From an uncultured bacterium (GTDB taxonomy: Bacteria > Atribacterota > Atribacteria > Atribacterales > Caldatribacteriaceae), in contig CAKZPS010000063.1 in the NCBI GenBank assembly GCA_937139415.1, forward strand, positions 1 to 64,000: 64,000 nt of DNA. Direction: 5' to 3'. A model generated the notes under the pieces. The model ran no database searches. It was given only the letters and a program-made list of their open reading frames with translations, and was not told where the DNA came from. Shown piece after piece: positions 12,984 through 25,899 of this stretch; position 1 is the stretch's first letter; each line of letters starts with the position of its first letter. Made by a program: the position numbers and the translations under genes.

Positions 12984-15014
12984 ATGGAGAATATCAAGTT
13001 CGAAATCGGTTGGAGCACGCATGAGGAGGAAGAGGTGGCTCTCCAAGAGGCTCTCTCCCCCATAAAGGAGAAAAGTGGAGCTTTTTCTTTCGCCTTTCTC
13101 TTTGCCACTCCTCACTATAATCCTCACCGGTTGGTCGATTGCTTTCGGCGCATGTTCCCCGCAGTAAAACTATTGGGTTGTGCTACTGAGGGTATTATCC
13201 TTCGAGAAACTTTGCTTTCTCGGGGGTTAGCGGTTTTAGTGCTTGGTGGAGAGGTGAAATCGTTCACGTTTAATGGGCAAGAACACCATCCTTTACTCCT
13301 GGGAGAGCAAGCGGGACGAGCTATCCAAGATGCCTCCTTTCGCGAGGGAACGGTGTTCATTTTCTTCGATGTTTCTATTGAAGTACCTTGTTTTCTCCAG
13401 GGAATATACAACATTTTAGGCCCTCATTTCTCTTATCTTGGAGGAGGTACAGAAACCTCTACTTGGACGGAAGAAGGTGTATGTAAAGGTTCAGTCAGTG
13501 TTGGGGTAGTGGAGGGGATTGCCTTTTCCACTCAGGTAGGACATGGGTGGTCGCCCACTCAAGACCTCTTGGTGGTTACGAAAACAAGAGGAAGGGAAGC
13601 CATCGAAATTGATGGTATTGCTCCTTATGGGGCTTATCGGGAGAGAATAGGAACGGTTGCGCAGGAAAATTTTCTGCACGCTGCGGCTCTCCATCCCTTG
13701 GGTTTTCTCAACGTTTTTGGTGAATATCTCATCAGAGACCCGGCCTATCTCACTCCTGAGGGATCTATCGGTTTTGTGGGGAGTCGGGTTCCCTCGGGAG
13801 CGGTGGGGTATATCATGGAAGGGACGGAAGAAAAACTTCTCTCTACGGTAAAAGAAGTGACCCGAAGGGCCAGGCAGAAAATAGAAAAGCCTTGTTTTGC
13901 TCTGGTCTTCGATTGCGTGAGTCGTTCCTCCTTTTTAGGGAATCGCTATAAAGAGGAGCTTCGAGAAATTGTGCATCATCTCGGTGACATTCCCACGGTA
14001 GGTTTTCTCAGTACCGGAGAGGTTCATCCTTATGGACATGCTCCTCGTTTCCATAATAAGACTGTGGTGGTCTTGGTAGGAGGAGAAGGGGCACAAAATG
14101 CTTCTTACTCGCCGCTTCGTTCTCAGCTTACCCTTGAAGCAGAACTTGCCATCCTCCATGAAATTTCGGCGTTCTCCTTTTCCGGTTCTTACCCCGAGTT
14201 TTTCCAAGAAACCGTTGAAAGAGCGGTACGGCTTTTTGGAGTTCAAAAAGTGGCTCTTCTTACTTCGCAGGAGGAACAAGAGTTCTTTGCCTCTTTTGGT
14301 TTGTCTCTTCCTGAGTCTATGCCTACGGATCCGAAAGCTTGTTCAGAAAAGCAACTTCTTTTCCTTTTGGGGAAGAAACAAGAGTTGGGACGACTCTTTT
14401 TCGAGACCCTCAAGCCGATCACCTCTCGAGAGAGGCGACTCTATACCCTCTTTGCCCGTAAAATTGAGGATATTCTCCGTGAAGCGAGCTATCTCATGGA
14501 GAAAGAACAGGAATTGAGAAGATTAGAATATCTCTCGCACACTGATGACCTGACCGGCCTTTATAACCGTCGGGGGTTTTTCTTCCTCGCTCAGCATCAA
14601 CTCTCCCTCGCTCGGAGGGAAAGTAAACCCTCGGTCCTCTTGTACCTCGATTTGGATAACCTGAAGTGGATTAATGACCATTTTGGTCACCACATGGGCG
14701 ACAGAGCCTTGCAAGAATTCAGTAATCTTTTGCGAAGAGTCTTTCGCCAATCCGACCTCATCGCTCGCATCGGAGGAGACGAATTCGCTCTGCTTCTCTT
14801 AGGTGTGGCGGGCGAGGAACTCGACGAAATCATCCACCGCCTCAACCAAGCGGTGGAAGAATGGAATAAGGAGAACGAAGGGTCGTACCATCTCTCTTTT
14901 AGTGTCGGAGGTGCTTTGCTTGATCCCTCAGAATCGGTGAATCTCCATGAGCTCCTCCACCTCGCCGACCAGGAGATGTATCAGAAGAAGAGAACGAAAA
15001 ATTTGAGTATGTAA
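12984..15014 (+). CDS. FIST sensor domain diguanylate cyclase (GGDEF)
   Basis: 676 residues. Residues ~30-230 form a FIST_N domain (LLGCATEGIILRE, LGGGTETSTW) and ~235-380 a FIST_C domain (PYGAYRERIG, VGFLSTGEVHPYG). FIST domains are predicted to bind small ligands such as amino acids. After a linker, a GGDEF domain (about 520-676) starts HTDDLTGLYNRRGFF and has an intact active site, GGDEF, at 597-601. The inhibitory RxxD site (RQSD) is exactly five residues upstream, so product inhibition by c-di-GMP is expected. No membrane segment is evident, so it is probably a cytosolic sensor making c-di-GMP from GTP. It is a single gene with its own promoter. A c-di-GMP-I riboswitch lies at 25.1 kb. 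Confidence 0.88.
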   Translation: MENIKFEIGWSTHEEEEVALQEALSPIKEKSGAFSFAFLFATPHYNPHRLVDCFRRMFPAVKLLGCATEGIILRETLLSRGLAVLVLGGEVKSFTFNGQEHHPLLLGEQAGRAIQDASFREGTVFIFFDVSIEVPCFLQGIYNILGPHFSYLGGGTETSTWTEEGVCKGSVSVGVVEGIAFSTQVGHGWSPTQDLLVVTKTRGREAIEIDGIAPYGAYRERIGTVAQENFLHAAALHPLGFLNVFGEYLIRDPAYLTPEGSIGFVGSRVPSGAVGYIMEGTEEKLLSTVKEVTRRARQKIEKPCFALVFDCVSRSSFLGNRYKEELREIVHHLGDIPTVGFLSTGEVHPYGHAPRFHNKTVVVLVGGEGAQNASYSPLRSQLTLEAELAILHEISAFSFSGSYPEFFQETVERAVRLFGVQKVALLTSQEEQEFFASFGLSLPESMPTDPKACSEKQLLFLLGKKQELGRLFFETLKPITSRERRLYTLFARKIEDILREASYLMEKEQELRRLEYLSHTDDLTGLYNRRGFFFLAQHQLSLARRESKPSVLLYLDLDNLKWINDHFGHHMGDRALQEFSNLLRRVFRQSDLIARIGGDEFALLLLGVAGEELDEIIHRLNQAVEEWNKENEGSYHLSFSVGGALLDPSESVNLHELLHLADQEMYQKKRTKNLSM

Positions 15015-15176: not shown

Positions 15177-16183
15177 TGGCATTCTCTAAGGAGTATCCCT
15201 TTTTCCCGCGCGGCGTTCGCTCCTTTTTCGCTTATATCGCCTTTTTCAAGAAATACAGCGAGGCTCGTTCCCAAACGTGAATCGACTGGCCTCTCTCCTT
15301 GAGGTAAGCCGTCGTACCGTCTATCGATACCTCGACATTTTGCAGGACGATTTTGGTGCACCCCTTGCTTTTTCTCGCGAGAGAGGGGGGATATTTTTTC
15401 ACTTCCTCTTGGAATTTCCCTTTTCCCGAATTCTCGGAAGGAGAACTCCTTTCGCTTTTCATTCTGGTAAATGTCCTGAAACAGTTTGAGAATACACCTC
15501 TTGAGGAATCACTCCAGGTTCTGCGCAAGAAACTCGAAAAAATTTTCCCCTCACTCTTAGGAATCATACCGGATAATCTGCGCATGATGCTTTCACCATT
15601 TGTTTCAGTTCTCGAACCCCGGGTATCAATCAGTGAAAATTTCCGAAAAGTCTTTGGGGCTATTCGAAATTATAGAAAGATTCGCATTACCTATCGTTCT
15701 CTTTCCTCCGGTGAGAGGAGGGTCCGCGACGTTGAACCCTATCACCTCTATAACTTTGAGGGAGTGTGGTATCTTTGTGGCTTTTGTCTCGAACGTCAAG
15801 CGTTACGTGATTTTGCTCTGGATCGCATGGAGGATATCGTGATTTTGCCAGAGCGGTTCGTGATGCCTCCTGATTTCGACCCGCATGTTTACCTCTCTCG
15901 GGCTTTTCGCATGTTTCGGGGAGAGGTTTGCCGAGTGGTTGTGCGCTTCGATCCCTACCAGGCTCAGTGGATACGGGAACGCATCTGGCATCCTACCCAA
16001 AAAATTACCGAGCTTGAGGACGGAGGGCTTCTTTTTGAAGTTGAGGGCAACCAGGAAGAGATCAAAAGATGGGTCATGGGGTATGGAACGCATGCTGAGA
16101 TCATAGAGCCACCCTCACTCCGGGAGGAGGTGAAGGAGGAGATTAAAAAATTGTATATCCAGTACTTTGAGAGTGACAGGTAG
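15177..16183 (+). pseudogene. WYL-domain transcriptional regulator of the cas locus (two frameshifts)
   Basis: Rebuilt protein of about 335 residues. It starts MAFSKEY at GTG 15177 (ribosome site GGGAGGTG), then has a DeoR-type winged helix (LFQEIQRGSF, LASLLEVSRRTVYRYLDILQ) and a C-terminal WYL domain (IRITYRSLSSGERR, then VEPYHLYNFEGVWYLCGFC, ALDRM). The frame shifts once between about 15205 and 15215 (near CCCGCGCGG) and once at 15385-15390, where a run of six G stands for five (restoring ERGGYFF). WYL proteins next to cas operons usually act as repressors that respond to nucleic-acid or nucleotide ligands. With both the HTH and the middle out of frame, control of the cas genes is probably lost. 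Confidence 0.8.
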
Positions 16184-16189
16184 TGTCAC
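16173..16189 (+). promoter_or_regulatory. Inverted repeat before cas6, candidate regulator operator
   Basis: Perfect palindrome GTGACA-N5-TGTCAC spanning the stop codon of the WYL gene and lying 41 bases before cas6. The spacing suits binding by a dimeric winged-helix protein such as the adjacent WYL regulator. A weak hairpin in RNA is the alternative. Confidence 0.4.
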
Positions 16190-16229
16190 CTTCAAGAATT
16201 ACAATATGTCCTGAAAGGAGGGAAGGGTA

Positions 16230-16994
16230 ATGCGAATACAGGTGACATTCAGGGTTGAACGCCTCCCTCTTTTGTATCGCAATGCCTTCATGAGTTTTCT
16301 CAAAGAGGTTCTGCAGGCGACACCCTCGGGAGAGAGGCGCTTTCCTGTGCTTTTTTTCTATGACCAGCGGAAAAACAAGGCTCCTAAGCCCTTTGGTTTT
16401 GCCGTTCGTTTTACCCATGACAAAGAACGTTTTGCTAAGGAGCAGGAATGGTTATACTTCACTTCTCCTCTCTTTTTGTACCTCTCTGTTTTCGAGGCCG
16501 GACCTTTCATCGACTTTTACAATGGTTTTCTTCAGGAACCGATCTATCCCTTCTTGAAAGAAGAGTTCGTACTTCCTCGGCCGGTGAGCATTCTTCCCCT
16601 TCGGGAGAAAAAAATCCTCAAAGAAGGAGCCCGCTTTCGTACGCTCTCGCCGATCTTGATCGAGGACGCTTCTCAAAAGCCCATCCTTCCGGAGGAAGAC
16701 CCCCAGGCTTTCCTGCGGGAACTCAACTACTATGCCGATACCATGCTTTCGGGAGTGCGAGGGAGAGGTCTTTTACGGGAGCTTGGATTTGAGCCGTTGA
16801 GGCTTCGGAAGGAGGTTGTAAAGCATGCCATAAAGAAAGGGGAAAAGGAATCTCGGGTGTATACCTTTACTTGTTTCAGCGGGGAATTCCTCATCCGTGG
16901 AGACCCCCAGGACCTCTATGACATTCAAATTCTCGGTCTTGGTCGGCGCCGTGCCCAAGGCTTTGGAATGCTTGAGGTAGTAGGCAATGGATGA
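16230..16994 (+). CDS. cas6: CRISPR-associated endoribonuclease Cas6
   Basis: Pre-crRNA processing nuclease, 254 residues. The C-terminal glycine-rich loop LGRRRAQGFGMLE (about 237-249) is the hallmark of Cas6, and the N-terminal MRIQVTFRVERLPLLYRNAF suits the first ferredoxin-like domain. The start ATG follows AAAGGAGGGAAG. It overlaps the next gene (cas8/cst1) by 8 bases, so it is the first gene of a compact cas operon. The frame is intact. Its natural substrate would be a repeat like the single one remaining at 24432-24460; with no array in the window it may have nothing to process. Confidence 0.85.
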   Translation: MRIQVTFRVERLPLLYRNAFMSFLKEVLQATPSGERRFPVLFFYDQRKNKAPKPFGFAVRFTHDKERFAKEQEWLYFTSPLFLYLSVFEAGPFIDFYNGFLQEPIYPFLKEEFVLPRPVSILPLREKKILKEGARFRTLSPILIEDASQKPILPEEDPQAFLRELNYYADTMLSGVRGRGLLRELGFEPLRLRKEVVKHAIKKGEKESRVYTFTCFSGEFLIRGDPQDLYDIQILGLGRRRAQGFGMLEVVGNG

Positions 16995-18742
16995 GGTGGT
17001 GCTCTATCCGGGAAGTTGGTTGTACAACGCGGGAGTAGTGGGATTACTTCGCATCCTCGATTTCGGTGGGAGGTGCAATAGTTACAAGTTTACCAACGAT
17101 GGTGTTAGAATAGATCCAAAAGCCTTCTTCAACTTTGGTTTTCTTTACTTTGCTTACGCAACTAAACTCTATCTGCTAGAGAACTTTGATCGCCTTTCGG
17201 TCTTAAAGTACAGGAAAAGTGAGATTGCGAAACAACTAGGTAAGGAAGGAGAAAGGCAGGTTAGAGAGAAGCTCAGAAACATCGATCAGGAGATTAGACA
17301 AAAAATTTTTGCTCTTGAGGCAGGGGGAGATTGACAACAATTTACGAAACAAATAGAGGATATGCGAGAACTCAATGTTTCAGCAACTCAATTGGGAATA
17401 AAAGTGGAGGAGCTTTCAAAGTTCCTGGACGAATTGAAGACGACAAAAAAAGCCTCTGATTACTTAGGGCGGTTCTACTTCAACAAGGATGTTATAGCTA
17501 ATCCAAAGGGTAGGAGGCCCCAAAGAATTGAAAAGTTCACTGAAGAATATCTTTCCTTTTTGAAAGCTAACTCTTCCCAAGACGGAGAATGTACCTGCTT
17601 TCTTTGTGGTCGTAAATATCAAGATTTGGAGTCCTTCTCTGAACTCACTGAAGGAGATTTTTCCTGTTTAGGGATAAGCAAAAATGAATTTGATAACGTG
17701 TATTCGTTCTACGCCAGTGACGGTGTATCATATCCGATGAAGTGCCCACTATGTCAATTGATTCTTTTGTGTGCCTTTGCCGGGTTTAACAAGAAGCCGA
17801 GGCAGGTGCGCGAGATTGACGAAACAGAGCATATCTTCGTGAATTATTCCCATATAGAGGAAGCTTATCGAGTGAATAACCGGCTAAATAGTTTCATGCA
17901 GGAAGCGAATTTGAAAATTTTTACAACAAAACAAAAAAATCCTCAACCCTTACTTACATACCTTAGAGGTAGTTCTTGAGGTTGTGGAGAGAAAGACGCG
18001 TTGGACGTTGGAAAATATCCTTTTCGTCGAAATAAAAACCTCGTCAAGAAAAAATCAGAACAAGCCTCATTTCGTTTACTTTAACCTGGATCAAGCTTTT
18101 GCCGAGGTCGTTGAAGAATTCAGTGCTTTCAAGCAACTGATTTCCGCTTTGGCTTTTCGTTATGAAGTAAATAAGAATGTCGAGGTCTATCTCTCTACTG
18201 AAATCCTGAAAAGGCTAATCCAGAAACAACCTATTGTACCCCTTGCTCTCAAATATCTTTCTGAAAGTATTGCTAATCAAGAAACGCGTCTTGGGCCTCT
18301 TTGGTCAATGATTGTTCTTGATTTTGTGCTTCGTAAAAAAAGAAGTGGTTTTCAGGAGGTGAGTGAATTGAGCAGTGGAGAAGTTTACGGTATCCTTCGG
18401 AGGATCCAAGATTGCGGTGCTTCCAGTTTCTCCATGGAGGAGATTGACCTCGAGAAACGTTTCCACCTTGCTCAACGATTTTTATCCCTCATCCGAGGAA
18501 CAAGAAAAGAGGATTTCTGCAATGAACTCTTGAGATTATATGTAGTCCATGAAAAACCGATACCCAAAGAAGTAAGCGATCTCATTTACGAGAGTGAAAT
18601 TGTTTCCTTCCAGGAGAAGGCATTGGCGTTTATTACCGGACTCTTGAGTTTAAGAAAGGGATCAATCTTAACCCGAGGTAGAAAATCGAACAGAGGAGGT
18701 TTCATGATGTGGAGAGAAAAGATGAGGAGAGAAAAGCATTAA
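16987..18742 (+). pseudogene. cst1: Cas8a1/Cst1, large subunit of a type I-B (Tneap) Cascade (nonsense codon and frameshift)
   Basis: Starts MDEVVLYPGSWLYNAGVVGLLRI, characteristic of Cst1/Cas8a1, and has the paired zinc-finger cysteines CTCFLCGRKY and MKCPLCQLILLCAF. Reading in one frame meets TGA at 17332-17334, after LEAGGD, and continues QQFTKQIEDMREL in the same frame. A second break near 17970 (one extra base in AGAGGTAG) moves the frame to VVLEVVERKTRWTLENILF. With one sense codon and one base removed, the protein is about 584 residues and ends at 18742, overlapping cas7. Cas8 recognises the PAM and opens target DNA, so its loss would disable interference. Confidence 0.85.
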
Positions 18743-19650
18743 CCTTGACTGCTGTGGTAAAGGCCTTTCCATTAAACTACGACGAGGGGTACGGCAATGT
18801 GGCAGTGGCAAAAAAGGTACACCGAGGTAATGGTGAAACTTACCTTTTCGCTTCCAGACAGTCGATTCGCTACAGCATTACTGAATGGTGCTTCCAAAAC
18901 GCTGGTTGGAAAAGGGCTACTGTTTCATCTGGTGAGGGAAACAAAAAAGTTGTCCAGCTTGATCTCAAACAATCATCGGGATCAGAAGAGGAAAATTATT
19001 TCGAAGAGGCCGATCTCTTTGGGTACATGATCACGACTGGAGAAACCAAAACGAGAAGCGCCGTAGCTCGGCTGACACATCTTATTTCTCTCGAGGCTTA
19101 TTACGGAGATCAAGAATTTCTCAATAACAAGGGTTTTGCCGACAGAATCAAAACAACACCGAATCTGGCAAACATCGAAACAGGGTATGGTTATTATAAG
19201 TACACCTTAGCGGTAGATCTTGATAGAGTAGGTAAGGATGAAAATTTCGGTTATAAATTTGATAAAGAGAAAAGAAAGAAAAGAGTAAAAGATTTGTTGG
19301 AAGCAATAAAATTCCTCTATCGAGATATAAAAGGTCGCAGGGAGGATCTTCGTCCTCTTTTTGTCATTGGAGGTGTTTACCCTATAAAGTTGCTCTTTTT
19401 TCACAATGCGGTTAATATCTACTGGCGTGGCTCAAAACCTTTCGTCAGCAGAGAAAGCATTAAAGAAGTGCTGAGGGTGGAATTGCGCGAAAAGAACGGA
19501 ACAAAGGAAAAAGTAGTTGACTATACAAAAATAGGTATTCAACGAGGAGAATTTGGAAATGATGGAGACTGGACAAAATCGCCTTTTGAAGCTATTGACG
19601 ATATAAAGAAGGACGTAGAAGAAGCTTTTGACAAATGGCTCCAACATTGA
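18709..19650 (+). CDS. cst2: Cas7/Cst2 (DevR family), Cascade backbone subunit
   Basis: 313 residues, RAMP-fold crRNA-binding subunit of the Tneap I-B complex. Recognisable parts are LTLTAVVKAFPLNYDEG, FASRQSIRYSITEW, FGYMITTGETKTRSAVARL and HLISLEAYYGDQEF. It starts at GTG 18709, ten bases after GAGGAGG and inside the end of cas8. Its stop overlaps the cas5 start by 16 bases. Intact. Confidence 0.88.
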   Translation: MERKDEERKALTLTAVVKAFPLNYDEGYGNVAVAKKVHRGNGETYLFASRQSIRYSITEWCFQNAGWKRATVSSGEGNKKVVQLDLKQSSGSEEENYFEEADLFGYMITTGETKTRSAVARLTHLISLEAYYGDQEFLNNKGFADRIKTTPNLANIETGYGYYKYTLAVDLDRVGKDENFGYKFDKEKRKKRVKDLLEAIKFLYRDIKGRREDLRPLFVIGGVYPIKLLFFHNAVNIYWRGSKPFVSRESIKEVLRVELREKNGTKEKVVDYTKIGIQRGEFGNDGDWTKSPFEAIDDIKKDVEEAFDKWLQH

Positions 19651-20333
19651 GGATCGAGATCAAACAGGACAAGGCTGTATATAGGACACCTTACTCTATG
19701 GAGATAATCGAAACATATCCTTTGCCTCCCTACTCCACAATTATTGGCTTTCTCCACAATATGTTGGGCTTAAAAGAAGTCCTTTGGGAAATCAATGTCT
19801 CTATTCAAGGCTCCCATGAGGGGGTATTGAGAGAATATGTCAGTTTTCACAAGTACTCTAAGGGGGAACGAGAGGGGAAAATCTATCCGATAGTAGTCAC
19901 TTCTTTGGTAAAGCCTTTTCTTGTAGTACATGTGAGGATGTCGAATGCAGACTGGCACAGACGACTTTTGGCGGCATTACAAGACCCTTTATACTTCCCT
20001 TACTTAGGACGTCCGGAAGATTTGATTACTGAGCTTAAGGTAACTGAGGTAGAAGAAACTGTTTTCCGCTCTAAGAATTCCCCAAGGGGAGGATTGGAGC
20101 TATCCTTTGACACTTACGTGCCTGTGGCTCAAGCAAGAACTTACGATCTATATGGCATGCGTTATTTTCTCCCAAGCTACTATCGTAAGAAAGAAAAAGG
20201 AACTCCTTCTAAGGGACTGCGTATGCGGGTCTTTGAATTAATCCCTGTCTTTTACGTCCAGAAGGGGAGATCGATCGTGCAAGATGTCCGAGTAGATAGC
20301 AAAGGCCTTCCCATATGGTGGATGACATTATAG
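19635..20333 (+). CDS. cas5t: Cas5 (Tneap type)
   Basis: 232 residues. The N-terminus MAPTLRIEIKQDKAVYRTP followed by METYPLPPYSTIIGF-like sequence (residues ~25-40: EIIETYPLPPYSTIIGFLH) is the Cas5 signature that holds the 5' handle of crRNA. The start ATG lies in the end of cas7 and the stop overlaps cas3 by 19 bases, as expected in a translationally coupled I-B operon. Intact. Confidence 0.87.
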   Translation: MAPTLRIEIKQDKAVYRTPYSMEIIETYPLPPYSTIIGFLHNMLGLKEVLWEINVSIQGSHEGVLREYVSFHKYSKGEREGKIYPIVVTSLVKPFLVVHVRMSNADWHRRLLAALQDPLYFPYLGRPEDLITELKVTEVEETVFRSKNSPRGGLELSFDTYVPVAQARTYDLYGMRYFLPSYYRKKEKGTPSKGLRMRVFELIPVFYVQKGRSIVQDVRVDSKGLPIWWMTL

Positions 20334-22460
20334 CTAAATCGAGGCCAAAGCAGACCCTGAAGGAACACACCGAAAAACTTCTTGAGAATTACCATGTTCT
20401 CAAAGAAAGTTATCCATTTCCTTTAAATAAAGAGGATTGGGAAATACTACAAAAAGCGTGTCTCTTCCATGATTTTGGGAAAGCAAATGAGTATTTCCAA
20501 TCTCTTATAAGAGGTCAAGGGAGCCTTAACCAGCGCCTCAACTTTCCCCACAATTTTCTCTCCATCGCCTTTATTCCTGAAAATGACGAATTGCTCATGC
20601 GATTGGTAGCTTTCCATCACTGGAGAGATATTCCTCCTATCGAAATGTAGCCTTAGAGGCTATTCATCAAGATATAGAGAGATACTTACCAAAAATTAAC
20701 GAGTAACGGTTTATTATTCTCCTGGGTTTGTTGAATCGTCTGGATCACGCTTCATCTGCAGGAGTGTCTGTAGAGAAGAGAAGACTTGAAAAATTTCCGG
20801 TAACCAGAGGCAAATTATTGCAAAAGACCTCCTGTCCCTGGCAGTTAAAAGAATTTAAGGAACAATATCAACAGCAAAACGGAGTTATTGCGGCCTCTAC
20901 AGGCTTGGGAAAGACCGAGATGGGGCTCTTGTGGAGCGGTGGAGGGAAAACTTTCTATACTCTCCCCATACGGACCTCAGGTAATCCATGTTCGACCGAT
21001 TAGTCAAGTACTTTGGAAATGAAAATGTTGGTCTTCTCCACAGTGATGCGTTTGGAAGAATCTTGCTTGGTATGGGAGAAAAGGGGGAGACCGATGACGC
21101 ATTGGTACATTATGATACGGCAAAAAACCTCTCGTTTCCTCTTACCGTAGCCACGGCGGATCAAGTGTTCACCTCAGCCTTAAAATTTTTGGGGTTTGAG
21201 AAGATTTACGCTACCTTATCATATTCGAAAATCATTGTAGATGAGATTCAGGCTTATTCTCCTGCCACTGTTGCCATTATCATACAAGCTCTTCAAGAGG
21301 TTCAGAAGCTTGGGGGTAAATATCTCGTTCTCACGGCTACCCTACCTCCTATCATCAAGAGTCATCTCGAGTGCGACTTTTACATTGAGCATATCCCTAA
21401 CTTGGAGAAACACCGAGTGGAACTAGTTTCTGCAGAGATAAATTCTCAAGTCATAAGGTTTGTAGGGAAGTTTTGGGGAAAGAAGATTTTGATTGTCTGC
21501 AACACGGTTAGGAAAGCTCAGGAGGTATATCGAATTCTCAAGGACCGGTATTCTCGATTTCGGGGGTACGATATAGAAAGCTGTTGTGTCAAAAGAAATC
21601 CCCTAATTCTATTTCATGGTTGCTTCACGTCTTGGGATAAAAGGGAAAAGGAGCGTATTGTCCTCGATCAAAAATTCTTGGGTATCTTGGTGGCAACACA
21701 GGTGGTTGAGGTGTCGTTGGACATTGATTTCGATGTCCTCTTGACTGAACTTGCGCCTCTTGAAGTTTTGATTCAGCGAATGGGCAGGATTTATAGGCGA
21801 TACAAGGAAGACGGAAAATACGCTCTGCAAGAACCTAATGTTTATGTCTTCACTGAAAATCCCTCAGGAAAAGGGACTGTGTACGAATCTGAAATTGTTT
21901 CAAAAACTCTGTCTTTTCTCAAGGATGGTATCCTTTCAGAAAGAAACAAGTTAGAAATGGTAGATCAATTCTATTCAGAAGCAAATCTTAGGGATACCAG
22001 ATACCTTGCCTTGTTTCGGAATGCTTTGGATTTCCTTAATAAAAGCTATGGCGAGAATAGTAAGGACAAAGCACAGGAAATTTTCCGGGGTATGGATTCC
22101 GTTAATGTCTTACCATCATCTTTTCTGGAAAGTCCAATTCAAAACCCGTCTCTTTTACAACATTTGTGTCTTCAGCAAGGTATCTCCTTAAAGTCTGCGC
22201 TTATCGGAATTAATTATGGAAACCGAGCTCAAAGGATGCTTGGCTACGAACTCATCAAAGATTTCCTTGTGCCTATAAGGACCTGGACTTTACAAAAAAC
22301 TGAGAGCAAAAGTCTATCGGACCTCGTTAAAAATGATCTTTTTAGAGGCATCTTGGTAGTTGATGGAAGATATGATGAGGAAGGTTTTAAGATTGACGCT
22401 AGAGATTGCAAAAACAGCACTTTCTCTGAGGGGGAAACTTTTGGGGATGGCATCATATGA
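20315..22460 (+). pseudogene. cas3: Cas3 helicase-nuclease (two frameshifts and a nonsense codon)
   Basis: N-terminal HD nuclease (CLFHDFGKAN, HNFLSIAF, FHHWRD) followed by a superfamily 2 helicase: ASTGLGKTEMGLL (motif I), YSKIIVDEIQAYSP (DExH-like box), LVLTATLPP (motif III) and IQRMGRIYRRY (motif VI). Three lesions are seen. Near 20637 one T is missing, breaking IPPYRNVALEAIHQD. TAA at 20704-20706 falls within KINE-RFIILLGLLNRLDH, explained by CAA to TAA. Near 20986 one G is missing, breaking TSGNAMFDRLVKYFG. Repaired length is about 715 residues. The nuclease and ATP-binding parts are separated from the rest, so DNA destruction should be lost. Confidence 0.87.
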
Positions 22461-22969
22461 GTGATTTCTTGGGGACGTTGGAGAATCTTCACATTACTGG
22501 AGTGAGGGTAAACTACTTCTTTGTATGCCCAAGAAAGCTCTGGCTCTTTGACCGGGGTATACAAATGGAGAAGAACTCCGATCGGGTCTTTTTGGGGAGA
22601 CTCCTTGACGAAGAGAGCTTCCCCAGGAAAAGGAAGAGGATAACCATTGACGATCTCATCGCCATTGATGTTCTCGATGATACAACTGTTTACGAAGTGA
22701 AGTACAGCAGGTCTTTTGAGAAGGCGAGCAAAATGCAACTTGGATATTATCTCTATTACTTGCGAAAGTTGGGTATCGAGAGGGAGGGGCTTCTCTCCTA
22801 TCCCCGGCTTCGGAGAAGAGAGAGTATGATACTCACGGATGGGTTTATTCAAGAAATTGAGGAAGCTCTCTTGAAGATTCAGAAAGTCCTTGCTTTACCC
22901 TCTCCTCCAAAGGCGGCGCGAAGACTATACTGTCCAACGTGCTCGTATTTTGAGTTCTGTTTTGGATAA
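22457..22969 (+). CDS. cas4: Cas4 exonuclease, iron-sulfur RecB-like
   Basis: 170 residues. One cysteine lies in NYFFVCPRKLWLF and three in CPTCSYFEFC at the C-terminus, the four ligands of the Cas4 iron-sulfur cluster. The RecB nuclease core appears as VYEVKYSRSFEKASKMQLGYYLYYL. Cas4 trims prespacers and checks the PAM with Cas1-Cas2. It overlaps cas3 by four bases (ATGA) and is intact. Confidence 0.9.
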   Translation: MSDFLGTLENLHITGVRVNYFFVCPRKLWLFDRGIQMEKNSDRVFLGRLLDEESFPRKRKRITIDDLIAIDVLDDTTVYEVKYSRSFEKASKMQLGYYLYYLRKLGIEREGLLSYPRLRRRESMILTDGFIQEIEEALLKIQKVLALPSPPKAARRLYCPTCSYFEFCFG

Positions 22970-22982
22970 AGGGGGGGTAGAG

Positions 22983-23960
22983 ATGCAGCCATACTATATC
23001 CTGAGTAGCGGAGTGATGAGAAGAAACGAGAATACTCTGCTTATTGAGAAAGAGGATGGGAAAAGAAAGGTTATTCCCATCGAGAATATGGATGCCCTTC
23101 ACCTTTTCGGACAAGTCACTCTCAACACCAATCTCCTCACTTTTCTCGCTCAGCAGGAGAAGCCTCTTCACGTGTATAACTATTATGGGTTCTACAGCGG
23201 CACCTTTCTTCCCCGAGAGGGAAACATTTCGGGAGAAGTCTTGGTTCACCAAGTCGAACATTACCTTAATCCTCAAAAGCGCTTTTCTCTTGCTCTTTCT
23301 TTTGTGGAGGGAGCCATATTTCATGCTCGAAGAAATCTGCGGGAATACCAGGAAACCACATTGTTCATTCAAAAGATTGAGGAAGAGCTGGAGCAGGCAA
23401 AGTATGTGACCACCATTTCCGAGCTTATGGGTTGCGAAGGAAGAGCAAAAGAGGCGTATTATAGAGCGTGGAACATATTTCTTAAAGAAGAATTCCCTTT
23501 TGAAAAAAGAATCAAACATTCTCCCTCGGATCCGGTGAACGCACTCATTTCCTTCGGGAATTCGCTGCTTTATACTACTATTCTCTCCGAGTGTTACAAA
23601 ACCCACCTTCATCCTGCGATTAGTTACCTTTATGAGCCGCGAGAGAGGAGATTTTCTCTGTGTCTTGACCTTGCGGAGATCTTTAAACCCCTTATAGTTG
23701 ATCCAATCATTTTTCGTCTTGTCAATTCTGGTGTTATTGTAAAACGTGACTTTATTCGGGATCTTGAGGGTTGCTATCTCAACGAGGAAGGACGCAAGAA
23801 ATTTCTCCAGGCTTTCGAAGAAAAATTGTGTACCACCATTAAACATCGCCGTCTAAAGCGCAAGGTTTCTTACAGGACCGTTTTGCGCCTCGAGTGCTAC
23901 AAGCTCATCAAGCACCTTCTGGGGGATGAAGTGTATGCTCCCTTTAAGGCGTGGTGGTAA
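22983..23960 (+). CDS. cas1: Cas1 integrase (type I-B)
   Basis: Spacer-integration nuclease, 325 residues, starting MQPYYILSSGVMRRNENTLLI at ATG 22983. The upstream part of this open frame overlaps cas4 and is not family-like. Metal-binding residues are in place: Glu in ELMGCEGRAKEAYY, His in THLHPAISYLYEP, Asp in LCLDLAEIFKP. SDPVNALISFGNSLLYT is the usual central helix. It is 13 bases after cas4 and one base before cas2. The protein looks intact, but its partner Cas2 is broken. Confidence 0.92.
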   Translation: MQPYYILSSGVMRRNENTLLIEKEDGKRKVIPIENMDALHLFGQVTLNTNLLTFLAQQEKPLHVYNYYGFYSGTFLPREGNISGEVLVHQVEHYLNPQKRFSLALSFVEGAIFHARRNLREYQETTLFIQKIEEELEQAKYVTTISELMGCEGRAKEAYYRAWNIFLKEEFPFEKRIKHSPSDPVNALISFGNSLLYTTILSECYKTHLHPAISYLYEPRERRFSLCLDLAEIFKPLIVDPIIFRLVNSGVIVKRDFIRDLEGCYLNEEGRKKFLQAFEEKLCTTIKHRRLKRKVSYRTVLRLECYKLIKHLLGDEVYAPFKAWW

Positions 23961-23961
23961 C

Positions 23962-24231
23962 ATGCCGTACTGTATCGTGACTTATGATGTTGGGGAGGAG
24001 TGAATTAACCGGGTGCGGAAGATTCTTAAACGCTATTTCACTTGAGTTCAGAATTCTGTTTTTGAAGGAGAGATTCGGGAAGGCATGCTCGAAAAGTGCT
24101 TTCGGGAAATACAAAAAGCCATAAAAGAGGATAGTGACTCCGTATATGTATACCATTTTGAACTTCAAAGTTCGTGTGTAAAACGCGTCATTGGTTGCGA
24201 AAAAGAAAAGGTGCTCAATCTTATATCGTAG
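23962..24231 (+). pseudogene. cas2: Cas2 (two in-frame TGA codons)
   Basis: Reading from ATG 23962 gives MPYCIVTYDVGEE, TGA (24001-24003), INRVRKILKRYFT, TGA (24043-24045), VQNSVFEGEIREGMLEK and on to TAG at 24229-24231, 89 codons in one frame. This is clearly Cas2: a TYDV strand with its Asp, then KRYFT-W-VQNSVFEGE. The first TGA sits where relatives often have Arg (CGA to TGA) and the second exactly at the conserved Trp (TGG to TGA). Both are explained by single C-to-T or G-to-A changes. TGA ends many intact genes here and TGG encodes Trp elsewhere, so recoding is unlikely. The gene is too short on each side to be listed as an open frame. Confidence 0.88.
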
Positions 24232-24990
24232 TTTTCTGCATCGAAGGGGTGGTGTTCTTGACTACCTTAAGAGGAGCTTTATTTCTGGATAGAAGCACAT
24301 TTTTGAGGGTTGGGTGGAAAACCCTACCGGAGGTTCGCTGCAGAAAGTTTCATTTTTGGACTTTTCCTTTCCTCAAGAAAATGTTTCTTTCTCTTTTCGT
24401 ACATGCGTTTTTATTTTTATTTGGTTTTTGGGTTTGATCTGAACTATGTGGGATGTAAACACGTTTTAGGTTTTTCATCTCCGTTAGTAGTAACCCGCTT
24501 TTCCTTGTTACCGCGAGGCGCATGTTCCGTGCCGTGGCGTGGTCTCTCTTTTGAATCAAGAGAAAAAGATGTTTCGCCTTAGTGGAGGTCGTAATGGAAA
24601 ACCAGGTTCACGAGGACGAATGAGAGAAACTGAGGTTCGAAAAAACGGGGGAAACGAGATTTGTCATACTCCCAGACGTCATATTCTTGGGTTCTTATCG
24701 TGATTAGAATTTAATCAGACTATACGCATGCACAAGAACCTGCGCACATTATCCTCACGTTATGAGAGAATGAAGCGGGCTACGCCCGAGGCGTTCAGAC
24801 GCCTCTCTCACATGATTGGCTTCTTGGGGATTGTGAATATTTTTTTCGAGATCTCTCTTTAGGTTAATCGATTCCGTGTTTTTGCCTCTCTCTTGACAAA
24901 GAGGAAAATACACCCTTCTGAAAATCTGGAATCTCCTACAATAAGGGGTAGGAAAATGAGTTTTTCGAAATCGAGGGAACAGAGGAGGTG
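24232..24990. other. Gene-free region after cas2
   Basis: About 760 bases without a supported gene. It holds the single repeat at 24432-24460 and two adjacent hairpins at 24775-24804 (GCGGGC-TA-CGCCCG-like, then AGGCGT-TCAG-ACGCCT). These could mark a terminator or small structured RNA, though no T run follows. A consensus TTGACA at 24893-24898 has no good -10 at 16-18 bases. The rest is T-rich and shows no protein-like composition. It is probably the footprint of a lost CRISPR array and leader. Confidence 0.5.
24432..24460 (+). CRISPR. Solitary CRISPR-repeat-like remnant
   Basis: A 29-base segment beginning GTTTGATCTGAACTATG and ending GGGATGTAAAC, 200 bases after cas2. It has the length, the GTTT start and the ...AAAC end typical of thermophile type I-B repeats. 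No second copy is found at spacer distance (60-70 bases) on either side, nor elsewhere in the window on either strand. It is best read as the last relic of the array, perhaps a degenerate terminal repeat. It could also be a chance resemblance, but the position beside cas2 argues against that. Confidence 0.6.
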
Positions 24991-25056: not shown

Positions 25057-25114
25057 AATTCCCCCTTTTCCCCCTAAAGTTCTTTCTTCCTTTGCCGATA
25101 TACAGAGTAAGGAA

Positions 25115-25196
25115 ATGAAAGGGTAAACTCTCCGAAAGGGGAGGGCACAAAGCCACGGGCCTACGGTGGGAACACTAAGGTAGCCGGGTTGCCAAG
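25115..25196 (+). promoter_or_regulatory. Cyclic di-GMP-I (GEMM) riboswitch
   Basis: The order of conserved elements matches the GEMM-I aptamer: AAAGGGTAAACT, a hairpin CTCTCC-GAAA-GGGGAG with GNRA loop, GGGCACAAAGCC (consensus GGACGCAAAGCC), CACGGGCCTA, a second arm, then GGTAGCCGGGTTGCC closing with the first segment. This aptamer senses c-di-GMP. It lies 65 bases before the C39-like lipoprotein gene, whose ribosome site can be paired (see 25230-25253). Identification is by eye; a covariance-model search would settle it. Confidence 0.85.
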
Positions 25197-25229
25197 TTCC
25201 TTTCTTTTTAGGCTTGTTTTGTTGCCCAT

Positions 25230-25253
25230 ACTCCCTCTCGGATGCAAGGGGGT
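25230..25253 (+). promoter_or_regulatory. Hairpin covering the ribosome site of the C39-like lipoprotein gene
   Basis: ACTCCCT (25230-25236) can pair with AGGGGGT (25247-25253), a 7-bp stem with one G-T pair. AGGGGG is the Shine-Dalgarno of the ATG at 25261. It may be the output element of the upstream riboswitch, acting on translation; no T-tailed terminator is seen between aptamer and gene. Confidence 0.45.
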
Positions 25254-25260
25254 CTTCGGG

Positions 25261-25899
25261 ATGAGAAAACGGCAGGTCGTCTTCTTGGTTTTAGGTTTAT
25301 TGGTAGTGGTCTTAGCCGGGTGTTCTTCGCAGCTCACGCTTCCCCCTCAGAATCGAGAAAGTCTCTTTCTCTCCCGATGGGTAGAGAATTCCTCTTCTCG
25401 GGTACTCCTTGACGTTCCATTTTTGCCTCAGGTTCCCCCTGGTGATTGGGCCAATACCCGTAATTGTGGAGTTGCTGCGGCAGTGATGGTGAAGGCTTAC
25501 TACTATGGGAGTACTCCAACTCCCCAAGACATTGTTGAAGCCGATGAATGGCTTCACGCCCGTTTTGGACTTCCGCTCAATAATTATAATGGAGATTTTA
25601 CCAATGTTTTTCAAATCCGTAGTTGGCTTGAAGCGCAAGGGATTTCGACTCGTATCGGTATGGGAAATGGAGAGATGTTACGTTCTTTTCTGAAGGAAGG
25701 AAAACCGGTCATTGTTGCCGTTTTTGCCCACATGAATCCGAGGAGTGCTAAACACGCCATGCTCCTTGTAGGAATGACCCAGGATGCGGTGATCGTACAT
25801 GATCCTGGGAAACCTAATGGCGCGAGCAACGTGTATTCTCTCAATCAATTCTTATCAAGTTGGCAGGCGCAGAATAACTGGTATATCACCATTGAATGA
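25261..25899 (+). CDS. C39-like (papain-fold) peptidase family lipoprotein
   Basis: 212 residues. A lipoprotein signal peptide ends in the lipobox LAGC (Cys about 21). The body is a peptidase_C39-like domain with the catalytic triad visible: Cys69 in NCGVAAA, His165 in KHAMLLVG and Asp181 in VHDPGK. PVIVAVFAH is the typical strand before the His. It probably cleaves or binds peptides at the outer face of the cytoplasmic or outer membrane. It starts at ATG 25261, eight bases after AGGGGG. Frames upstream of that ATG lie in the riboswitch and are not coding. Control by c-di-GMP suggests a role in surface or biofilm change, for example processing of an adhesin; that part is inference. Confidence 0.8.
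   Translation: MRKRQVVFLVLGLLVVVLAGCSSQLTLPPQNRESLFLSRWVENSSSRVLLDVPFLPQVPPGDWANTRNCGVAAAVMVKAYYYGSTPTPQDIVEADEWLHARFGLPLNNYNGDFTNVFQIRSWLEAQGISTRIGMGNGEMLRSFLKEGKPVIVAVFAHMNPRSAKHAMLLVGMTQDAVIVHDPGKPNGASNVYSLNQFLSSWQAQNNWYITIE

What the first reader, a model, noticed from the sequence alone, without database searches (positions are those of the whole stretch)
15177..24460. A type I-B CRISPR-Cas locus caught in the act of decay
WYL regulator, cas8/cst1, cas3 and cas2 each carry at least one frameshift or stop, while cas6, cas7, cas5, cas4 and cas1 are fully open. Only one repeat-like copy remains. Interference (Cas8, Cas3) and adaptation (Cas2) should both be dead. Broken and intact genes are interleaved, which suggests recent loss, perhaps after the array disappeared.
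Basis: partly seen in the sequence, partly recalled or inferred. Interest (0 to 1): 0.7.

Follow-up and report, generated by a model that had tools for sequence, protein, structure and literature searches.

The report
Dying CRISPR locus in collapsing genome
This stretch holds a bacterial immune system (a type I-B CRISPR-Cas locus) that is turning into pseudogenes after losing its memory array, and the other CRISPR systems of the same genome are broken too while neighbouring genes are intact, so this lineage appears to have given up CRISPR immunity altogether.

Summary
Window 15177-24460 is a type I-B (Cas8b1/Cst1, Cst2, Cas5t) operon: WYL-cas6-cas8-cas7-cas5-cas3-cas4-cas1-cas2-leader-one repeat. 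A relative in the same family (G002) carries the same genes open and in the same order from WYL to cas4; its contig ends inside cas1. Against it and G010, WYL, cas8, cas3 and cas2 are pseudogenes: about five frameshifts, four clear nonsense codons, a 12-codon and a 38-codon deletion. First, cas1, read as intact, has lost its active-site histidine: His217, present in 89 of 89 relatives, is Tyr here. Second, this is not a local event. The second I-B locus (Csh type), the III-A locus and two solitary cas6 genes of the genome are also frameshifted, and the four other CRISPR repeats found in the assembly sit at three leader sites with a single spacer among them. A syntenic 12-kb control of 11 ordinary genes shows no internal lesion. 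The single repeat matches the first repeat of relatives' arrays (27/29) at the same place. Nonsense counts suggest roughly 1-3% neutral divergence since inactivation. CRISPR decay is a known process; parallel loss of every system found in one genome is the more interesting part.

The parts
15181..16183 (+). WYL-WCX transcriptional regulator, pseudogene: no usable start at the ancestral N-terminus (in-frame TAA 15187) and a +1 frameshift in a G run near 15385
   Evidence: Alignment to the open 347-codon frame of G002; Pfam WYL and WCX
16230..16994 (+). cas6, open, conserved positions kept
   Evidence: TIGR01877 79.6 bits against cut-off 58.65; 82% identical to G002 without lesion; no departure from conserved columns
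16987..18704 (+). cas8b1/cst1 pseudogene: TGA 17332, 12-codon in-frame deletion near 17374, +1 frameshift near 17941, +1 frameshift near 18653
   Evidence: Alignment to the 584-residue G002 protein and to G010; PF09706 and TIGR01908 on the fragments
18724..19650 (+). cas7/cst2, open (an upstream GTG start at 18709 is also possible)
   Evidence: TIGR02585 157.5 bits; no frame lesion against G002; a frameshift is flagged only near the truncated end of the G010 copy
19635..20333 (+). cas5t, open
   Evidence: TIGR01895 113.3 bits; no lesion
20315..22460 (+). cas3 pseudogene: -1 frameshift near 20633, 38-codon deletion with TAA 20704 removing part of the HD-domain region, -1 frameshift near 20986
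   Evidence: Alignment to the 752-residue G002 protein; homologues elsewhere have residues in the deleted stretch
22457..22969 (+). cas4, open; four cysteines and D71, E80, K82 kept
   Evidence: PF01930 169 bits
22983..23960 (+). cas1, open but with active-site His217 replaced by Tyr (TAT 23631-23633) and conserved Pro180 replaced by Ser
   Evidence: PF01867 301 bits; His in 89 of 89 relatives; G010 copy has His at the same place
23962..24231 (+). cas2 pseudogene: TGA at 24001 and 24043, frame otherwise readable
   Evidence: Alignment to G010 Cas2, 66% identical
24232..24431 (.). former leader region between cas2 and the first repeat
   Evidence: Alignment to G010 and G016
24432..24460 (+). 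single remaining CRISPR repeat GTTTGATCTGAACTATGTGGGATGTAAAC, 27/29 identical to the repeat of relatives; rest of the array gone
   Evidence: one copy in the assembly

Best explanation
The locus is a once working type I-B (Cst-type) CRISPR-Cas system that lost its spacer array and is now eroding under little or no selection. Shown: the operon, the lesions, the missing array, the loss of an invariant active-site His in the open cas1, and parallel lesions in the second I-B locus (Csh), the III-A locus and two solitary cas6 genes of the same genome, with ordinary genes intact. Inferred: interference is dead (no full Cas8, no full Cas3), adaptation is dead (no full Cas2, Cas1 without its active-site His), and the common cause is that CRISPR immunity as a whole stopped being maintained, or was selected against, in this lineage. 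The loss is fairly recent: broken genes still show dN/dS of about 0.1-0.2 against the open relative, and nonsense counts correspond to roughly 1-3% neutral divergence. The open cas6, cas7, cas5 and cas4 are most simply genes not yet hit.
For: Open orthologous operon in G002 and open parts with a short array in G010. Lesion list. Cas1 His217 invariant in 89 of 89 relatives. First-repeat relic in register with relatives' arrays, with no other copy in the assembly. Second I-B locus C60:36341-44195: cas8b, cas3, cas4, cas1 frameshifted, no cas2 found. III-A locus C72:469-8490: two CARF genes, cas10, csm3, csm4, csm5 broken. Solitary cas6 at C62:95225-95804 and C33:298-797 in split frames. Three leader sites hold four repeats and one spacer. 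Control: 11 syntenic ordinary genes, 3716 codons, no internal lesion.
Against: No reads were available, so individual frameshifts near homopolymers (15385, 17941) could be assembly errors. The genome is a 76-contig assembly (96% complete), so an array or a further CRISPR locus could be missing from it. Two of the three leader sites lie at contig ends. No second genome of this genus was held, so fixation in the population is unknown. No formal test shows that the open genes are free of selection.
Confidence: 0.88

Rival explanations
1. Sequencing or assembly error: the genes are intact in the organism and the lesions are indel errors of the assembly.
For: Some frameshifts lie at or near homopolymer runs (15385 in G6, 17941 near A7). 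No reads to check.
Against: In-frame deletions of 12 and 38 codons, two TGA in cas2 and one in cas8, and a His-to-Tyr change at an invariant site are not indel errors. The same contig has 11 control genes and 3716 codons without an internal lesion; with equal exposure the chance that all 9-11 lesions fall in the CRISPR genes is about 2e-4 to 8e-4. Lesions recur in CRISPR loci on other contigs.
Confidence: 0.05
2. Partial repurposing: the open cas6-cas7-cas5 (with cas7 and cas5 also open in the second I-B locus) are kept as a small RNA-processing or RNA-binding complex outside immunity, while the nuclease and adaptation genes are discarded.
For: cas7 and cas5 are open in both I-B loci; open genes keep most conserved residues and low dN/dS (cas6 0.08, cas5 0.09). 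Cst2 belongs to the DevR family, known by name for a developmental role (general knowledge).
Against: Sparing of these genes is within chance for length-weighted hits (p 0.05-0.18). Broken cas3 and cas8 show similarly low dN/dS (0.11, 0.19), so the low values reflect the time before loss. No array is left to supply crRNA with this repeat.
Confidence: 0.06
3. A strain mixture in the metagenome: the consensus shows a decayed allele while other cells of the population still carry a working locus, so the loss is polymorphic and not fixed.
For: Two leader-repeat sites lie exactly at contig ends with different flanks, which could come from strain variants as well as from a three-copy leader.
Against: The window locus assembles through without a break and with many independent lesions in one contig.
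Confidence: 0.12

Closest known systems
Degraded CRISPR/cas loci of Shigella and Salmonella (Touchon and Rocha 2010, PMC2886076)
   Same: Frameshifts and truncations in most cas genes, cas3 and the large-subunit gene (cse1) pseudogenes beside intact genes, leader sequences outlasting the system.
   Different: There one system family in enterics, in Shigella within genome-wide decay with IS elements; here two I-B systems, a III-A system and solitary cas6 genes decay together while ordinary genes stay intact, and the window lesions are point changes and small deletions, not insertions.
Loss of CRISPR after a host shift in Mycoplasma gallisepticum (PMC3276549)
   Same: Array stops growing, spacers are lost and cas genes disappear over a short time.
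   Different: There a host-restricted pathogen with complete loss of the four cas genes; here small lesions in several loci of a genome related to Candidatus Caldatribacterium.
Type I-B (Cas8b1/Cst1) CRISPR-Cas of relatives in the same family (G002, G010)
   Same: Same gene order, 61-83% protein identity to G002, same repeat in G010.
   Different: Where contigs reach, relatives have open genes; G010 also has a short array. The window copy has neither a full set of open genes nor an array.

Membership tests
Type I-B CRISPR-Cas (Cst variant) | Cas8b1/Cst1 large subunit with Cst2-type Cas7 and Cas5t | tested here: met
   TIGR01908 (19.5 bits, just over its 19.4 cut-off, on a fragment) and PF09706 for Cas8; TIGR02585 and TIGR01895 for Cas7 and Cas5; 76% identity to the open G002 Cas8
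Type I-B CRISPR-Cas (Cst variant) | Complete Cas3 helicase-nuclease | tested here: not met
   Two frameshifts, a stop and a 38-codon deletion
Type I-B CRISPR-Cas (Cst variant) | Complete adaptation module Cas1-Cas2-Cas4 | tested here: not met
   cas2 has two nonsense codons; Cas1 lacks its invariant active-site His; cas4 open
Type I-B CRISPR-Cas (Cst variant) | CRISPR array with spacers | tested here: not met
   One repeat, no spacer, no other copy in the assembly
Degraded (pseudogene) CRISPR-Cas locus | Open orthologous locus in relatives and inactivating lesions here | tested here: met
Degraded (pseudogene) CRISPR-Cas locus | Lesions confirmed in raw reads | not testable with these tools
   No reads available
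Degraded (pseudogene) CRISPR-Cas locus | Lesion rate above that of ordinary genes of the same genome | tested here: met
   9-11 lesions in 3050 CRISPR codons against none internal in 3716 control codons

The most novel reading that the evidence does not exclude
The open cas6-cas7-cas5 set (cas7 and cas5 open at both I-B loci while nuclease and adaptation genes die) is a retained minimal RNA-handling complex with a role outside immunity, kept as all CRISPR defence in the genome is dismantled.
Probability: 0.06. Interest if true: 0.65.

Novelty: new member of a known kind. Interest (0 to 1): 0.42.

Why it matters
CRISPR decay has been described mostly for host-associated bacteria and single loci. 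Here two I-B systems, a III-A system and solitary cas6 genes erode together in one genome of a lineage (family of Candidatus Caldatribacterium) in which relatives keep CRISPR genes and arrays, while ordinary genes are intact. This points to a switch in the value of CRISPR immunity itself and offers a lineage in which its cause (other defences, low phage load, gene uptake) could be sought. It also shows that an open cas1 frame is no proof of adaptation: the active site must be read.

Tried and rejected
A 22-codon cas7 deletion against G002 was rejected because G010 shows no such gap. Interleaving of broken and open genes as evidence of selection was rejected. TGA read as Trp was considered because two of the TGA codons stand where relatives have Trp (cas8 W116, cas2 W28); rejected because a third stands for Arg and cas6 of the same operon ends at TGA. 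The last spacer of the second locus has no second match in the genome, and 23 bases of it have no exact match in viral contigs. No paper on CRISPR decay in this lineage was found. Three-taxon substitution counts did not separate open from broken genes clearly. No structure was predicted: the sequence evidence settled the question.

Full report
What is there. The window lies in contig C63 of a 2.32-Mb, 76-contig genome (completeness 96.36, contamination 0.58). The nearest named relatives in the Cas1 search are Candidatus Caldatribacterium californiense OP9-cSCG and a Candidatus Atribacteria MAG (75% Cas1 identity). G007 of the same GTDB family has a contig of the same length with the match in the corresponding place as the Caldatribacterium record, so it is very probably that genome. 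Between 15.2 and 24.5 kb the plus strand carries WYL regulator, cas6, cas8b1/cst1, cas7/cst2, cas5t, cas3, cas4, cas1 and cas2, followed by a leader-like stretch and one repeat. This is the Cst variant of type I-B.

Reference locus. G002, same family but another genus, has the operon open in the same order from WYL to cas4: stop-to-stop frames of WYL 347, cas6 270, cas8 585, cas7 341, cas5 242, cas3 756 and cas4 179 codons; cas1 is cut by the contig end. G010 supplies open WYL, cas6, cas8, cas4, cas1 and cas2 and a short array. G014 and G016 supply further arrays or array starts with the same repeat.

Lesions. A frameshift-aware protein-to-DNA alignment gives: WYL, in-frame TAA 15187 in the N-terminal region and +1 near 15385; cas8, TGA 17332, loss of 12 codons near 17374, +1 near 17941, +1 near 18653; cas3, -1 near 20633, loss of 38 codons with TAA 20704, -1 near 20986; cas2, TGA 24001 and TGA 24043. 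Homologues of Cas3 elsewhere have residues in the 38-codon stretch, one of them (L100) without any gap, so it is a deletion here. cas6, cas7, cas5 and cas4 have no frame lesion. They keep the strongly conserved residues apart from a few columns in cas7, cas5 and cas4, most of which also vary in some relatives.

Hidden lesion. Cas1 is open, but His217 is Tyr (TAT 23631). It is His in 89 of 89 aligned relatives, in the G010 copy and in the solved structures 2yzs and 7ei1 aligned to it. From general knowledge of Cas1 this is the metal-binding His of the active site. Conserved Pro180 is also changed to Ser. Adaptation is therefore very likely dead even without the cas2 stops.

Array. The copy at 24432-24460 differs at two positions from the 29-nt repeat of G010, G014 and G016 and falls at the first repeat behind cas2 and leader in the alignment with G010 and G016. 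A search with up to 3 mismatches finds no other copy in the assembly.

Beyond the window. A second I-B locus of the Csh type lies at C60:36341-44195: cas8b with several frame lesions, cas3, cas4 and cas1 frameshifted, no cas2 found, cas7 and cas5 open. It ends in a two-repeat, one-spacer remnant at C60:44690-44785. The same leader plus one repeat occurs at the end of C60 and at the start of C72, each passing straight into other sequence without a second repeat; the shared leader may be why those contigs end there. C72:469-8490 holds a III-A locus with two CARF genes, cas10, csm3, csm4 and csm5 broken and csm2 open. Solitary cas6 genes at C62:95225-95804 and C33:298-797 are split as well. The Cas1 search shows only the two I-B loci.

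Control. A syntenic block in the same contig (window 27.2-39.5 kb against G001 and G002) gives 11 genes and 3716 codons. The few events flagged lie close to the ends of over-extended reference frames; none is internal. Coding-frame maps of the held stretches show long uninterrupted frames outside the CRISPR loci. With 3050 CRISPR codons in the window, the probability that 9-11 lesions all fall there by chance is about 8e-4 to 2e-4.

Age and selection. dN/dS against G002 is 0.08 (cas6), 0.19 (cas8), 0.14 (cas7), 0.09 (cas5) and 0.11 (cas3); broken and open genes do not separate, so the loss is short compared with the divergence. About 4.4% of random substitutions in these genes would create a stop; three to six nonsense codons in 5325 bases then correspond to about 1.3-2.5% neutral divergence since inactivation. 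This is a rough figure. Sparing of five genes by 9-11 lesions is not clearly significant under length-weighted chance (p 0.05-0.18).

Function. Interference needs Cas8 for the complex and Cas3 for cutting; both are broken. Adaptation needs Cas1-Cas2; one is broken and the other has lost an active-site residue. Cas6 could still process repeats, but no array with this repeat was found. The simplest reading is a dead system with some genes not yet hit.

Comparison with what is known. CRISPR decay is documented: Shigella and Salmonella (PMC2886076) and Mycoplasma gallisepticum (PMC3276549). The cost of CRISPR immunity when beneficial plasmids are to be acquired is the subject of PMC3784566 (seen as title and abstract only). 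The mechanism is thus ordinary. The parallel erosion of all systems found in one genome with ordinary genes intact is the more notable feature; no report on this lineage was found.

Limits. No reads, no second genome of the genus, a draft assembly, and pattern-based array searches only.

Noticed in passing
G000:C60:36341-44195 (L005:6341-14195): Second type I-B (Csh) locus of the same genome with frameshifts in cas8b, cas3, cas4 and cas1, no cas2 found, and a remnant array of two repeats and one spacer.
   Followed up: yes
G000:C72:469-8490 (L026): Type III-A locus with two CARF genes, cas10, csm3, csm4 and csm5 broken; csm2 open.
   Followed up: yes
G000:C60:44690-44840, C60:54065-54144, C72:1-80: Three copies of one leader (about 50 bp shared to the contig ends) each with a repeat but almost no array; two lie exactly at contig ends.
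   Followed up: partly
G000:C62:95225-95804 and G000:C33:298-797: Two solitary cas6 genes, both in split frames.
   Followed up: partly
window 16230-22460 compared with L024: cas6-cas3 are unusually close to G002 (dS 0.67-1.4, 75-83% protein identity) while syntenic ordinary genes are saturated at synonymous sites and cas4/cas1 are 61-66% identical: the effector block was probably exchanged horizontally.
   Followed up: partly
window 25112-25196: c-di-GMP-I riboswitch (RF01051, 78.8 bits) directly upstream of a C39-like peptidase gene at 25189-25899.
   Followed up: partly
window 12984-15014: Gene for a FIST-N, FIST-C and GGDEF domain protein next to the CRISPR locus, intact.
   Followed up: partly
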